From Akkermansiaceae bacterium (lineage in GTDB: Bacteria > Verrucomicrobiota > Verrucomicrobiia > Verrucomicrobiales > Akkermansiaceae): DNA of 62,334 bases. Position 1 is the first letter of the stretch. Each line of letters starts with the position of its first letter. Shown piece by piece: positions 1-9,372 of this stretch. The notes beneath the pieces were generated by a model. That model was not told the origin of the DNA and made no database searches. It saw only the letters and a list, made by a program, of their open reading frames with translations. The stretch is from the NCBI GenBank assembly GCA_903878115.1, contig CAIRGO010000164.1, forward strand, positions 1-62,334, written 5' to 3'. The position numbers and the translations under genes are program-made.

Positions 1-364
1 CGCGATCCACGTGAAAAGAACAGACATCCGTGCGCATCAACGCTTGCTCCTCATGACCGATGTAGCCATTGACGCAATCAATCTCAGGATCAAAGCCATA
101 CGCTTGCAATTGCTCCTGGTCACGGAGCATGAAGTCAATCGCCACTTTCCCCGCCGCACTCACCGGCAGCGCGAGCAATTGAGCACGGTCAAGCGTGGTG
201 ATGCCGCGCTCTCCGCTGAGATGACGAATCACTTCCGAAAAATCTCCCTCTAACGAACGTCTCAGACACAGCGCATTGACTCCATCGCGCATCGGCGTGG
301 ACACAAGTTCTTCCATGCTATGCACATAGCGCACATACGGCAGATCAGGTGGCGCGGAGTTCAT
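1..364 (-). CDS. Hypothetical protein, 3' part cut off by window edge
   Basis: Open frame on the minus strand from an ATG at 362-364 to the window edge, about 121 codons, with the C-terminus outside. It starts MNSAPPDLPYVRYVHSMEEL and ends near DVCSFHVDR. There is no signal peptide or membrane segment. The frame is intact and codon use resembles the neighbours, including a GTTAGA Leu-Glu context near 249-254. The conserved-looking FHVD at the cut end is reminiscent of the DUF1826 family, where a Cys-Pro-x-FHVD motif occurs, but the rest is missing so this is only a suggestion. No function can be assigned. Confidence 0.6.
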   Translation of the reverse strand, partial: MNSAPPDLPYVRYVHSMEELVSTPMRDGVNALCLRRSLEGDFSEVIRHLSGERGITTLDRAQLLALPVSAAGKVAIDFMLRDQEQLQAYGFDPEIDCVNGYIGHEEQALMRTDVCSFHVDR

Positions 365-4380: not shown

Positions 4381-7300
4381 TCACTGACAAGCCTCACAAG
4401 TCCCGCCGTTCATCATTGCCTCCAAGGAGCAGGCGTTGCGTTCGGCTTCGGTGTAGGTGCTTTTTGGCTCGCCGCTCATGGTGCCGCGGATTTCTTTGGT
4501 GACGTTGATGGTCGATTTCTCGATGTTGTTGGCTTGCATGGTGCGCAAATAATACGTCGTCTTGAGGCCTTTGCTCCAGGCGCGGCGATACATGTGGCTG
4601 AGTGCCTTGAAGTCGGGGTCGGCCAGGAACAGGTTGACGCTTTGGCTCTGATCGATCCACTTTTGACGACGCGCGGCGGCATCGACGATGGCTTCGTAGC
4701 CGACACCGAAGGCGGTTTGGTAACGTGCTTTGATGTGCTCGGGGATCGTGGAGATCGCATCGAGTTCACCGTCGAAGTATTTCAACTGGTCGAGCATTTC
4801 CTGATTCCACAGGCCGGCTTTTTTCAAATCCTGCACGAGGAAGGAGTTGAGGATGATGAAGTCACCAGCGAGGTTGGATTTCACAAACAGGTTCTTGTAG
4901 TTCGGCTCGATGCAGGGCGTGGTGCCCATGATGTTAGAGATCGTCGCGGTCGGCGCGATGGCCAATACGTTCGAGTTGCGCATGCCGTGCTTGGCGATTT
5001 TTTCTCTGACAAATGTCCAGTCCATTTTGCCACCACGTGGGGTATCGATCTTCACGCCGCGTTCTTCTTCTAACAAGTCAATCGTATCCTGTGGCAACAA
5101 TCCACGATCCCACTTGGAGCCTTTGTAGCTGGAATAGGTGCCGCGATCAGCAGCGAGGTCGCTCGAAGCACTATAAGCATAGTAGGCGATCGCTTCCATG
5201 AATTCATCGTTGAATTCCACAGCAGCAGGCGAACTAAAGGCGAGGCCTTTTTTGTAGAGTGCATTTTGCAAGCCCATCACGCCGAGACCGATGGGGCGGT
5301 GGCGTGAGTTAGCTGTCTTCGCAGCCACGGTGGGGTAGAAATTGATATCGATCACACTATCCAGCGCGCGGATCGCCACGGTGATGGTTTCCTTGAGCAT
5401 CTCATGGTCGATGATGCCATCTTCATTGATGTGAGTATCGAGGATGACCGATCCAAGGTTGCAGACGGCGGTTTCCTCATCGCTGGTATTGAGAGTGATC
5501 TCGGTGCAGAGGTTCGACGAGTGAATCACACCGCAATGGTCCTGCGGCGAACGCACGTTGCAAGGGTCCTTGAAGGTGATCCAAGGGTGGCCAGTTTCGT
5601 AAATCATCTTCAGCATCGACTTCCACAAATCAATCGCTGGCAATTGACGCGACCAGATTTTTCCAGTAGCGGCAAGTGCTTCGTATTCCTCGTAGCGTTG
5701 CTCAAAGGCCTTGCCAAAGAGGTCGTGCAGATCCGGCACTTCGTTCGAGCGGAACAAAGTCCAGTGCTGGCGCGCCTCCATGCGTTTCATGAACAAATCC
5801 GGAATCCAGTTCGCGGTGTTCATGTCATGGCAGCGGCGGCGGTCGTCGCCCGTATTTTTACGGAGATCAAGGAAATCCTCGATGTCGTTGTGCCAGGTTT
5901 CCAGATAAGCGCAACCAGAGCCACGACGCTTGCCGCCTTGGTTCACAGCCACGAGTTGGTCGTTGTGGAGCTTCAAGAAAGGAATGATGCCTTGTGATTC
6001 GCCGTTGGTGCCTTGAATGTAGCCACCGGTGCCGCGCACAGCGGTCCACGAACCACCGAGGCCGCCCGCCCATTTCGAGAGGTAGGCATTTTCGGCGATG
6101 CCGCGTTGCATGATCGACTCGATCGAGTCATCTACTTTGTAGAGGTAGCAAGACGAGAGCTGGCTGTGCAGTGTGCCCGAATTGAAAAGGGTAGGAGTGG
6201 ACGAGCAAAAACGACGACCTTTGTAGAGATTGTAGAGGCGCACGACCCACTGCTCGCGGTTTTCGACTTCCGTCTTGAACAAGCCCATGGCGACGCGCAT
6301 CCAGAAAAACTGTGGCGTTTCCAGGCGACGTTGTTTGTTGCCCGTTTTGTCGATGATCAGATAGCGGTCATACATCGTCTGCACGCCGAGGTAGTCGAAA
6401 TCGAGGTCGGCACTGGGGTCGAGCGCATCGGCGAGGATATCGAGGTTAAAGGATTCGAGCAAATCCGGATGGATGCGCTTGATCGCGACACCGTGCGTGA
6501 GGTGACGACGGAAAGCATTGCGGTGGGCGGTTTTGATGCCACCAATGCCATCGCGCAGGATGTTCCAGCCGAGCACTTCCTCGTAGATGTAGGTGAGCAA
6601 TATGCGACCAGCGAACTTGGCGAAGTCGGCATCTTTTTCGATCATCGTGCGGGCATTGAGGATGATCGTTTGCTTGAGATCATTGGCGGAAATTTCCGAG
6701 CCGATCGAACGACGCAATTCGCGCTCGATTTCGTTTTCCGTGAGGCAGAGGTCCAGACCGATCGAAGCAAAGCCGATGCGTTTTTTCAAATCCGCGCCAT
6801 CCCAGAAAGCCGATTGGCCATCCTCATCGGTGACAACGATCATCGACTCCTGATTGAGATCCTCGACCACTTCCTCGTGATCACTGCGGTAGCGGGCACG
6901 CTCAAAACGATAGCCCATGTAAGCGCGCATCGCCTTCAAGAAACCAGCGCGGCCGAGTTCTTCCTCGACCATGTCCTGCACGTCCTCGATGTTGACAAAT
7001 GCTTGCTCACCGGTGCGCACACGGTCGGTGACAGCCTTGGCGATATCGAGCGATGGCTCTGGATTTTCGCGGATCGAAAGGAATGCCTTGCGCACCGCGA
7101 TTTCGATTTTCGTTTCCGACCACGGCACCACGTTGCCATTGCGGCGGATCAAACGCACCGGCATCGTTTGCGGCGCGGTGTTCACATCGACGTCGCCACT
7201 GCGCTCATAGGAACGACGGAACGCGAGTGACTTCGCGACATCGTAGGCGTCATTTTCTACGAGGGCTTTTTCAATGAGCAGGTAGAGATCATTTTCCGAG

Positions 7301-7644
7301 AGGCGCATGCGACCGCCTTCTTCGATGTTTTTCGTGAGAGATTTTGCGACCGAGTGCGCGACGGCAGAAACAAACGCGCGATTCGAATCGCTGAAGATCG
7401 AGTCTTGTTTCGTTTGACGCGAAACGAGCAAATCCGTGAGAGCATTGCCGATGGTATCGGCGACTTTTTCCAGCGAGAACTGTGTTTCATTGGCACCCGA
7501 AGTGACAGTGATTTCTGGATGAGAGCCATTGAAATCCTTGCCCAGTACTTCGCGCCATGCGAACTGCGTGTCGACGATATTGGTGCGGTCAGTGATGACT
7601 TTTTTCAAGGCGAGGTCTTCTTCAAGATTAAGGGAGCGGTACAT
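4381..7644 (-). CDS. nrdA: Ribonucleoside-diphosphate reductase large subunit, class I
   Basis: A 1087-residue R1 subunit that reduces ribonucleotides to deoxyribonucleotides with the NrdB encoded upstream. A canonical ATP-cone (VRLIRRNGNVVPWSETKIEI) spans about 162-252. A second, diverged cone lies at about 44-145, making the N-terminus much longer than in E. coli NrdA (about 760 residues). Catalytic features are visible: C499 (QLSSCY), C713 and E715 (NLCTEI), C728 (CNLGS), and a C-terminal redox pair C1083-x-x-C1086 (GGTCEACQ). The C499-C713 spacing of 214 equals the E. coli C225-C439 spacing. Third gene of the nrdB - four-helix - nrdA operon. No Shine-Dalgarno precedes the ATG. Allosteric control by ATP/dATP is expected from the cones. 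Confidence 0.97.
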   Translation of the reverse strand: MYRSLNLEEDLALKKVITDRTNIVDTQFAWREVLGKDFNGSHPEITVTSGANETQFSLEKVADTIGNALTDLLVSRQTKQDSIFSDSNRAFVSAVAHSVAKSLTKNIEEGGRMRLSENDLYLLIEKALVENDAYDVAKSLAFRRSYERSGDVDVNTAPQTMPVRLIRRNGNVVPWSETKIEIAVRKAFLSIRENPEPSLDIAKAVTDRVRTGEQAFVNIEDVQDMVEEELGRAGFLKAMRAYMGYRFERARYRSDHEEVVEDLNQESMIVVTDEDGQSAFWDGADLKKRIGFASIGLDLCLTENEIERELRRSIGSEISANDLKQTIILNARTMIEKDADFAKFAGRILLTYIYEEVLGWNILRDGIGGIKTAHRNAFRRHLTHGVAIKRIHPDLLESFNLDILADALDPSADLDFDYLGVQTMYDRYLIIDKTGNKQRRLETPQFFWMRVAMGLFKTEVENREQWVVRLYNLYKGRRFCSSTPTLFNSGTLHSQLSSCYLYKVDDSIESIMQRGIAENAYLSKWAGGLGGSWTAVRGTGGYIQGTNGESQGIIPFLKLHNDQLVAVNQGGKRRGSGCAYLETWHNDIEDFLDLRKNTGDDRRRCHDMNTANWIPDLFMKRMEARQHWTLFRSNEVPDLHDLFGKAFEQRYEEYEALAATGKIWSRQLPAIDLWKSMLKMIYETGHPWITFKDPCNVRSPQDHCGVIHSSNLCTEITLNTSDEETAVCNLGSVILDTHINEDGIIDHEMLKETITVAIRALDSVIDINFYPTVAAKTANSRHRPIGLGVMGLQNALYKKGLAFSSPAAVEFNDEFMEAIAYYAYSASSDLAADRGTYSSYKGSKWDRGLLPQDTIDLLEEERGVKIDTPRGGKMDWTFVREKIAKHGMRNSNVLAIAPTATISNIMGTTPCIEPNYKNLFVKSNLAGDFIILNSFLVQDLKKAGLWNQEMLDQLKYFDGELDAISTIPEHIKARYQTAFGVGYEAIVDAAARRQKWIDQSQSVNLFLADPDFKALSHMYRRAWSKGLKTTYYLRTMQANNIEKSTINVTKEIRGTMSGEPKSTYTEAERNACSLEAMMNGGTCEACQ

Positions 7645-7660
7645 ATGATTATAGTGGTAA

Positions 7661-8128
7661 GTGTGGAGTGATCAGTGATCAGTGGATTGAGAATTGATGG
7701 CGATTAGCTATCGGTTTTGTTTTGTTTGCGTTCTAGGGCGTTTATGAGGCCTTGAAGCATGGCGGAGATTTCTTTGGTTTCTTGGATGATTTCTTTGGCC
7801 GTAGGCAAGCCAGTGAGGTTAAGTTTTTTATGCACTCTTTCGTGCACGTAAATTTGAGTGCGGAGTTCACCGCAAGAGCCTTTGCTATAGCGAAGGAAGC
7901 GCATGAAATCCGCAGTGGAATCGCGCTTGCAGCCTTCTGCAATGTTCGACGGAATTGAAACGGATGCGCGGGTCATTTGATCCTTGAGCGAATAGTTTTT
8001 CGAATCATGCATGCAAACGCAAACATCGACAGCAAGCTGACATGCACGCTTCCATACTTCGAGGTCTTCAAATGTTTTCACATCACTCATAACACTGCTT
8101 CTTCACACTGTCACTGATCACTTCACAC
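7661..8128. mobile_element. Inverted-repeat-bounded cassette carrying a four-helix-bundle gene
   Basis: The 25-nt stretches 7661-7685 and 8104-8128 are inverted copies: read toward each other they match at 17 of the first 18 positions (GTGTG, one mismatch, then AGTGATCAGTGA). They lie immediately outside the stop (7704) and start (8090) of the gene between them, and inside the nrdB-nrdA operon. The core is a tandem AGTGATC-like unit. No transposase is encoded. The simplest reading is a small non-autonomous insertion containing one gene; a hairpin-forming RNA element is the alternative. Confidence 0.5.
7704..8090 (-). CDS. Four-helix-bundle protein (S23/IVS family)
   Basis: A 128-residue protein of the four helix bundle family (TIGR02436), related to proteins encoded in 23S rRNA intervening sequences and to Avd of diversity-generating retroelements. 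Family hallmarks are the N-terminal FEDLEVWKRACQL, then LKDQMTRASVSIPSNIAEG and FMRFLRYSKGSCGELRTQI. Molecular function is not established for stand-alone members; they are small, basic and probably oligomeric. It lies between nrdB (stop 8140) and nrdA (start 7644) in the same direction, flanked by inverted repeats. That position suggests insertion into the reductase operon rather than a role in nucleotide reduction. Confidence 0.9.
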   Translation of the reverse strand: MSDVKTFEDLEVWKRACQLAVDVCVCMHDSKNYSLKDQMTRASVSIPSNIAEGCKRDSTADFMRFLRYSKGSCGELRTQIYVHERVHKKLNLTGLPTAKEIIQETKEISAMLQGLINALERKQNKTDS

Positions 8129-8139
8129 TAGCAACTTCA

Positions 8140-9267
8140 TCACAGATCATCGTCGTCGATTTGGCCGAGGGCGGAGGATTTTTGATATTCGGTGACGCGG
8201 CCTTCGAAGAAGTTTTGCTCTTTCTTGATGTCCATCATTTCGGCGAGCCATGGGAATGGATTGGAAACACTTTCGTTGAGCGGTGCGAGACCACACGAGA
8301 TCAGACGACGGTCGGCGATGTAGTCGATGTATTCTTCAAAGTCGCTGGAGTTCAATCCGATCGATGCGACGGGCAGGCAGTCGCGGATGAATTTTTTCTC
8401 GAGACGAATGCCCTCGGACATTGTCGCGCGCAGATCTTCGCGGAACTCCTCCGTCCAGATGTCGGGATTTTCATCGACGAGATCCATCAGTAGATTGCGG
8501 AAGACTTCGATGTGGTTCGATTCATCGCGCAGTGTGTAGCGGAACATTTGACCGATGCCAGGAAATTTGTTTTGGCGATAGAGGCTGAGGATCATGCCGA
8601 ACAAGCCGTAGAATTGCGTGCCTTCCATGACTTGGCCAAAGAGGAAAATGTTCTTCGCGAGCGACTGTTTGTTTTCCGTTTTCGTGAGGTCGATATCGCG
8701 ACGCATGGCGCGGCTGTTAGACACGACAAAATGATTTTTCTCCGTGATCGTCGGGATGTCTTCGAACATCGCTTCGCACTCGTGTGGATTGAGACCAAGC
8801 GAGGAAATCATATAGACGAGCGAATCCGCGTGGATGTTTTCTTCGTGCGCATGACGACCGAGCACCAACTTCAGTTCCGGAGCAGTCACCACTTCGCGGA
8901 CGACATGCAAGACGTTATCACCGACGATGCCTTCCGCAGCGGAGAAGTAACCGATGCCCATCTTGATGATCCAGCGCTCGACATCAGAAATTTCATTCGA
9001 GCGCCATTGCTCGACGTCTTTTTGCATCGGGATGTCCTCCGGCTCCCAATGGTTGTTTTTCATCGTCTTATACAAATCGTAGGCCCAGGTGTATTTCAGC
9101 GGCAGGATGTTAAAGAACATCGTGTCTTTGCCGTTGATGACGCGTTTGGCGTTAAAGGCGGCTTCGGCTTTTTCTTTATCGAGGGTGAAAGTGCGTGTGC
9201 CTAAGGTGACGGTGGTGGTATTAGCAGAAACAATATTTGTGGTTGGTATAGTGGTAGTAGCAGACAT
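8140..9267 (-). CDS. nrdB: Ribonucleotide reductase small subunit, class Ic-like
   Basis: A 375-residue R2 subunit when started at the ATG at 9267; the frame stays open to 9381, but that extension overlaps the NrdR-box region and looks untranslated. Metal ligands align as E112, E143, H146, E215, E249 and H252, with the same 31 and 34 spacings as Chlamydia R2 (E89/E120 and E193/E227). The first ligand is Glu rather than the usual Asp. The radical-tyrosine position, four residues after the first His, is L150 (ENIHADSL) instead of Tyr. Both traits are hallmarks of class Ic enzymes that use a Mn/Fe centre instead of a tyrosyl radical. The C-terminal tail with a Tyr and acidic end fits R1 docking. 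First gene of the operon. Confidence 0.95.
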   Translation of the reverse strand: MSATTTIPTTNIVSANTTTVTLGTRTFTLDKEKAEAAFNAKRVINGKDTMFFNILPLKYTWAYDLYKTMKNNHWEPEDIPMQKDVEQWRSNEISDVERWIIKMGIGYFSAAEGIVGDNVLHVVREVVTAPELKLVLGRHAHEENIHADSLVYMISSLGLNPHECEAMFEDIPTITEKNHFVVSNSRAMRRDIDLTKTENKQSLAKNIFLFGQVMEGTQFYGLFGMILSLYRQNKFPGIGQMFRYTLRDESNHIEVFRNLLMDLVDENPDIWTEEFREDLRATMSEGIRLEKKFIRDCLPVASIGLNSSDFEEYIDYIADRRLISCGLAPLNESVSNPFPWLAEMMDIKKEQNFFEGRVTEYQKSSALGQIDDDDL

Positions 9268-9372
9268 AAATAGAAGAATGATATGGTGAAAAAGCGCTGA
9301 TCGTAGATAAAATGCCATCATGCGCGCAGCGAGGCGAAGATTAGGGAAAAATACTTCGGACGTCAAAGGAAT

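What the first reader, a model, noticed from the sequence alone, without database searches (positions are those of the whole stretch)
7661..8128. Repeat-bounded four-helix-bundle cassette inside the nrd operon
An S23/Avd-like four-helix-bundle gene lies between nrdB and nrdA. It is tightly bracketed by 25-nt inverted repeats (17/18 matches in the core) that start just outside the gene. The gene is foreign to ribonucleotide reduction, there is no transposase, and the operon continues on both sides. This looks like a tiny non-autonomous mobile unit that tolerates or exploits insertion into an operon. The repeats also carry tandem AGTGATC units.
Basis: partly seen in the sequence, partly recalled or inferred. 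Interest (0 to 1): 0.7.

Follow-up and report, generated by a model that had tools for sequence, protein, structure and literature searches.

The report
Heptamer-bracketed S23 gene cassettes
A tiny gene sitting between two essential DNA-building genes is bracketed by mirrored runs of a 7-letter DNA word, and the same bracket design surrounds most genes of this family (S23, known only from odd inserts in ribosomal RNA) that I sampled across many bacterial phyla, which points to a very small, previously unrecognised kind of dispersing DNA element.

Summary
An S23 (PF05635) gene lies between nrdB and nrdA, bracketed by inverted 25-nt arms (0 of 5,000 shuffles as good). The finding is much larger than this site.

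- In three samples (133 S23 genes, over ten phyla) 88-90% have matching inverted arms; PIN genes in the same genomes, 0 of 29. The arms have period 7 and no other.
- Arm sequences differ widely but share one unit form, nnnn-(A/G)-G-(T/A).
- Relatives' nrdB-nrdA gaps are short and gene-free, hold S23 with other arms, or hold an unrelated PDDEXK_3 (GxxExxY) gene in its own inverted arms. One of these keeps a leftover S23 arm.
- Identical arms occur alone elsewhere: 29 exact 21-mers in one genome, none in 33 others.
- S23 is under purifying selection (dN/dS about 0.1-0.16). Arm mismatches show no RNA-pairing signature.

Best explanation: a dispersing element organised like RAYT/REPIN (a gene with inverted ends, plus free ends), with arms acting as DNA sites and S23 the likely binder. 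No transposase was recognised, no target duplication found, and movement was not observed. rRNA intervening sequences may be a special case.

The parts
7704..8090 (-). S23 / 23S rRNA-intervening-sequence-type four-helix-bundle gene (128 aa), in sense with the nrd operon
   Evidence: PF05635 1e-29, TIGR02436, NF008912; AlphaFold pLDDT 95.8, four helices; Foldseek 2GSC, 2RLD, 4DWL; dN/dS 0.10-0.16 against congeners
8106..8136 (-). Upstream arm: array of 7-nt units (AGTTGCTAGTGTGAAGTGATCAGTGACAGTG), G-rich strand in sense, starting 3 nt after the nrdB stop
   Evidence: unit form nnnn(A/G)G(T/A)
7653..7684 (-). Downstream arm, inverted copy (CACTGATCACTGATCACTCCACACTTACCACT), ending 8 nt before the nrdA ATG
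   Evidence: a 25-nt core of it recurs (100% and 96% identity) on contig C232 of the same genome
8140..9270 (-). nrdB, ribonucleotide reductase small chain (host operon gene upstream)
   Evidence: PF00268 1.7e-67
4381..7644 (-). nrdA, ribonucleotide reductase large chain with ATP-cone (host operon gene downstream)
   Evidence: PF02867 8.5e-185, PF00317, PF03477

Best explanation
A minimal dispersing cassette: one S23 gene between two inverted arrays of a 7-nt unit. SHOWN: this architecture is the rule for S23 genes in all three samples; the arms of one gene match each other; the arms follow one unit form with a variable 4-nt part; arm copies lie dispersed without a gene; the site is occupied by different cassettes or none in relatives. 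INFERRED: the arms act as DNA recognition sites (not as an RNA hairpin); the S23 oligomer (five chains in solved homologues) binds them, perhaps one subunit per 7-mer with the 4-nt part giving specificity; S23 plus host nuclease, replication or repair functions copies or moves arm-bounded DNA into gene junctions, as RAYT is thought to do for REPINs. The catalytic step is unknown: no transposase or reverse transcriptase was recognised in the cassette.
For: Inverted arms at alignment score >=12: 88% of 74 S23 genes in order-level relatives (cross-pairs 5%, PIN 0 of 29), 90% of 30 genes from over ten phyla (cross 8%), 90% of 29 genes from an independently drawn Bacteroidota order (cross 17%). Period 7 is the only enriched period. 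Shared unit form with G at 83%; period-7 model score 30.8 against <=8.5 for periods 5, 6, 8 and 9. Exact 21-mer arm: 29 copies in G021, 8 in G022, 4 in G031, 2 in G028, 1 in G015, none in 33 others; reversed-pattern control 0. Those five genomes carry S23 genes of one part of the tree. The free unit is sharply bounded at about 32 nt amid unrelated flanks. Gene-free inverted pairs and a pair-free site at a second junction. nrd site: S23, two kinds of GxxExxY cassette, or short gap, with a relic S23 arm beside a GxxExxY cassette. Arm similarity follows protein identity at non-orthologous sites (0.42 above 60% identity, 0.19 at 20-30%).
Against: No movement was observed; all evidence is comparative, one genome per species. 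No target-site duplication. No recognised catalytic domain in the cassette. At the nrd site the S23 genes are mostly one clade, so much of the pattern is inheritance. Free arms persist in congeners that no longer have the matching S23 at nrd. The short-gap relatives could be ancestral or deleted states; gene trees did not resolve direction. S23 binding to the arms is untested.
Confidence: 0.62

Rival explanations
1. Regulatory rather than mobile: S23 is a sequence-specific nucleic-acid-binding regulator, the arms are its own operators, and the free arms near gene starts and stops are its regulon.
For: The outer end of free arms lies within 25 nt of a gene start in 16 and a stop in 17 of 45 cases, against 3 and 8 of 46 for the inner end; matched arms and protein co-vary; S23 is conserved.
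Against: Cassettes are exchanged wholesale at one site with an unrelated gene; free arms differ in number from 1 to 29 between related genomes; the polarity also follows if free arms are remnants of inverted pairs inserted between co-directional genes; regulation would not require an inverted pair around the gene.
Confidence: 0.17
2. RNA-level element, an mRNA version of the rRNA intervening sequence: the arms pair in the transcript, RNase III cuts the hairpin, and the arms are kept for RNA folding.
For: The cassette transcript folds with paired arms, z=-4.85; cassettes mostly lie in sense with neighbours (121 vs 25 and 48 vs 9); Coxiella IVS has an S23 ORF and a 28-bp terminal stem cut by RNase III in vitro (PMC4990558).
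Against: Arm mismatches show no excess of sense G-U wobbles (124 against 171 antisense-type); free single arms cannot form the hairpin; no Rfam match. A sense bias is also expected from selection against transcription clashes in operons.
Confidence: 0.1
3. Ordinary slippage repeats: 7-mer arrays arise by replication slippage in intergenic DNA and S23 genes merely sit among them.
For: Heptameric repeats are known to be common in bacterial genomes (PMC4692102, PMC4679880 as found).
Against: Slippage does not place an inverted matching array on the other side of a gene, does not do so for about 90% of one gene family and 0% of another in the same genomes, and does not produce exact 21-mers at 29 places.
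Confidence: 0.04
4. Old vertical insertion whose arms are simply decayed ends of a conventional lost transposon; S23 is a passenger.
For: S23 genes at the nrd site form mostly one clade.
Against: Arms of orthologous nrd-site elements differ between genera (6-13 between the arm types) yet match within each element (16-35), so both ends were renewed together; dead ends would only decay.
Confidence: 0.07

Closest known systems
23S rRNA intervening sequences (IVS) with an S23p ORF (Leptospira, Coxiella)
   Same: Same protein family (PF05635), an ORF of similar size between terminal inverted repeats, about 430-500 nt in all; suspected mobile, origin unknown (PMC4990558)
   Different: Not in rRNA here but between protein genes; arms are period-7 arrays; free arm copies dispersed. 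Whether rRNA IVS arms also have period 7 was not tested.
RAYT / REPIN system
   Same: A conserved gene flanked by inverted repeats whose copies are dispersed singly and in inverted pairs in intergenic DNA (PMC3116915)
   Different: No HUH/Y1 transposase; the ends are heptad arrays, not palindromes; S23 is a four-helix bundle without a known catalytic site
Heptameric repeats of cyanobacteria and Beggiatoaceae (STRR, TAACTGA) and small dispersed repeats (SDR)
   Same: Intergenic 7-nt tandem units; TAACTGA repeats were reported without a known carrier and an unidentified binding protein was proposed (PMC4679880)
   Different: No link to an S23 gene or to inverted brackets was reported in the papers found
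Avd, accessory protein of diversity-generating retroelements
   Same: Same fold (4DWL, TM 0.67, Foldseek prob 1.00); PF05635 noted as Avd-like (PMC10053308)
   Different: No reverse transcriptase or template repeat recognised in the cassette; sequence identity to Avd only about 11%
GxxExxY / PDDEXK_3 (PF13366) genes in inverted arms
   Same: Same layout of one small gene between inverted short-unit arrays, at the same nrd junction in congeners
   Different: Unrelated nuclease-type protein; arm period about 9-10 and weaker, different unit sequence

Membership tests
S23 / 23S_rRNA_IVP protein family (PF05635, TIGR02436) | Score above the curated cut-off over the whole model | tested here: met
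   103.1 bits against 33.8; TIGR02436 104.3 against 24
S23 / 23S_rRNA_IVP protein family (PF05635, TIGR02436) | Four-helix-bundle fold as in 2GSC and 2RLD | tested here: met
rRNA intervening sequence | Located inside a 23S rRNA gene | tested here: not met
   Lies between nrdB and nrdA; no Rfam match in 7400-8400
rRNA intervening sequence | Terminal inverted repeats able to form a stem | tested here: met
rRNA intervening sequence | Excision from RNA by RNase III | not testable with these tools
   needs RNA work
RAYT / REPIN | HUH (Y1) transposase gene | tested here: not met
   the only gene between the arms is PF05635
RAYT / REPIN | Gene flanked by inverted copies of a sequence also dispersed in the genome | tested here: met
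RAYT / REPIN | Ends are imperfect palindromes | tested here: not met
   ends are period-7 direct arrays of strand-biased composition, G>C in 90%
Classical insertion sequence or MITE | Target-site duplication | tested here: not met
   4-7 nt duplications no more frequent than in cross-pairs, tested on free arms only
Classical insertion sequence or MITE | Transposase, own or in trans with the same ends | tested here: inconclusive
   none in the cassette; trans-acting transposases not surveyed genome-wide
Diversity-generating retroelement (Avd) | Reverse transcriptase and template/variable repeats adjacent | tested here: not met
   none between nrdA and nrdB

The most novel reading that the evidence does not exclude
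S23 genes across bacteria are a class of tiny dispersing elements with a heptad-code end: a conserved (A/G)G(T/A) core plus four variable bases read by the S23 oligomer. They move without any known type of transposase, share the layout with GxxExxY cassettes of different period, are the source of many of the unexplained 7-mer repeats in bacterial genomes, and the S23-encoding rRNA intervening sequences are one insertion type of the same class.
Probability: 0.4. Interest if true: 0.93.

Novelty: categorically new. Interest (0 to 1): 0.86.

Why it matters
S23 intervening-sequence proteins and intergenic 7-mer repeats are two long-standing puzzles, and no paper found here links them (nine searches of an open-access library that lacks most subscription journals). 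If the link holds, it gives a protein candidate for the unknown carrier of heptameric repeats, an origin for rRNA intervening sequences, and a very small dispersing system with an apparently readable recognition code. Each point is directly testable with a 128-aa protein and 30-nt oligonucleotides.

Tried and rejected
RNA-pairing selection on the arms: tested through the strand asymmetry of G-U mismatches, not supported. Target-site duplications: none. Defence-system membership: no PADLOC match. Known RNA family: no Rfam match. S23 genes lacking arms sitting in rRNA: 10 loci checked, only nearby tRNAs. Direction of S23/GxxExxY exchange at nrd: nrdA and nrdB trees do not resolve it. Other cargo between compact inverted 7-mer arrays in the L008-L127 loci: the pairs at 300-800 nt with the G-rich arm on the left (L024, L038, L058) all contain S23; more distant pairs enclose other genes and may be chance. 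First idea that the arms mark only this gene's lineage: rejected, as arms differ in sequence but share the unit form. In one search the G035 open reading frame was mis-called, and its dN/dS values and arm scores were set aside.

Full report
What is in the window. The nrd operon runs on the minus strand as nrdB (8140-9270), S23 (7704-8090), nrdA (4381-7644), with identities confirmed by Pfam. The S23 gene is bracketed by inverted arms at 8106-8136 and 7653-7684. The upstream arm begins 3 nt after the nrdB stop and the downstream arm ends 8 nt before the nrdA start. The core match of 23 of 24 columns with one gap was reached by none of 5,000 shuffles.

The neighbourhood in relatives. In 38 related genomes nrdB and nrdA remain neighbours in most, but the gap differs. 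S23 genes with AGTGATC-type arms sit there in G000, G003 (degraded), G004, G009 and G035. S23 genes with GTTTTCA-type arms sit there in G015, G021 and G022, and with another type in G018. In six congeners (G001, G002, G005-G008) the gap instead holds a PF13366 (PDDEXK_3, GxxExxY) gene in its own inverted arms of two further types. Other relatives mostly have 66-235-nt gaps with no gene recognised. G006 keeps a full S23-type downstream arm beside its GxxExxY cassette, so one cassette apparently replaced the other there.

It is the rule for S23 genes. I aligned the 220 nt upstream of each S23 gene with the reverse complement of the 220 nt downstream. In relatives 88% of 74 genes scored 12 or more, against 5% of cross-pairs and 0 of 29 PIN genes from the same genomes. 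In 30 genes from over ten phyla the figure was 90% against 8%; those genomes had been chosen for holding a GTGATCA array, so the sample is biased toward array-rich genomes. In an independently drawn set of 41 genomes of a Bacteroidota order, 37 had S23, and 90% of 29 loci had arms against 17% of cross-pairs. Period 7 alone is enriched in all three samples. GxxExxY genes also have inverted arms (76% of 29), with period about 9-10 instead.

A shared unit form. A phase-finding model over the upstream arms prefers width 7 strongly (30.8 against at most 8.5 for widths 5, 6, 8 and 9) and gives nnnn-(A/G)-G-(T/A), with G at 83%. In 90% of elements the upstream arm has more G than C, so polarity is conserved. 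The four variable bases differ between elements (GATC, TTTC, CACT, ATCA and so on). Arm similarity rises with protein identity between elements at unrelated sites, mainly above 60% identity (overall correlation 0.13 against a permutation maximum of 0.09). This is modest support for the protein reading the arms.

Free arms. The exact 21-mer TTTTCAGTGTTCAGTTTTCAG occurs 29 times in G021, 8 in G022, 4 in G031, 2 in G028, 1 in G015 and in no other of the 38 genomes; the reversed control gives zero. G021, G022, G028 and G015 carry S23 with these arms, and G031 an S23 of the neighbouring branch. The copies are sharply bounded at about 32 nt with otherwise unrelated flanks; a few in G021 lie in longer local duplications. 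Their outer end lies within 25 nt of a gene start or stop far more often than the inner end. At the atp junction of the genus, five species have a gene-free inverted pair, one a single arm, one an arm plus another sequence, one no recognisable pair. The window's own arm also recurs on contig C232. The GxxExxY arm 16-mer is dispersed too.

Mechanism. The protein is under purifying selection (dN/dS about 0.10-0.16) and folds as the five-chain entries 2GSC and 2RLD and the DGR protein Avd. Orthologous nrd-site elements of different genera have unlike arms that still match within each element, so both ends were renewed together. Arm mismatches show no sense G-U excess, which argues that the arms are kept as DNA sites. 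I therefore favour a RAYT/REPIN-like organisation with S23 as the arm-binding factor and an unidentified, probably host-supplied, catalytic step. Binding and movement are inferred, not shown. The strongest rival is that the arms are an S23 regulon.

What is known. IVS elements in rRNA with an S23 ORF and terminal stems have been called selfish and of unclear origin (PMC4990558). Heptameric repeats have been described without a carrier (PMC4679880). PF05635 was noted as Avd-like (PMC10053308). Nine literature searches found no report joining S23 genes to 7-mer arrays; the library holds open-access papers only, so prior description elsewhere cannot be excluded.

Noticed in passing
L006 (G000 contig C232) 3240-3920: Gene-poor stretch with at least four spaced copies of the AGTGATC-type arm and other repeated phrases (for example ...CATTCGTCATTCGGAAATCAAA...), without an S23 gene.
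   Followed up: partly
L007 (G000 contig C7) 1610-2263: A 217-aa ORF with a weak S23-like N-terminal part (27 bits) and a C-terminal zinc-finger-like tail; similar weak matches lie 4-5 kb from nrdB in G004 and G007.
   Followed up: no
window 11-253 and L007 738-1394: The first ORF of the window closely resembles part of an ORF on contig C7, so the window edge may be a duplicated or collapsed stretch of the assembly.
   Followed up: no
G018:C3:987828-992694; G006:C19:50422-54616; G028:C1:2570925-2582352: Clusters of several S23 genes, or S23 between two PF13366 genes, within a few kilobases: possible pile-ups of cassettes.
   Followed up: no
L008-L127: Exact (GTGATCA)n arrays occur in genomes of many phyla (search stopped at 120 loci); 241 period-7 arrays in those loci, most without an S23 gene nearby.
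   Followed up: partly
L227-L256: PF13366 (GxxExxY) genes are bracketed by inverted arrays of longer units such as CACGGAATA, CACGAATCT and CACAGATGGA; a parallel class that deserves its own study.
   Followed up: partly
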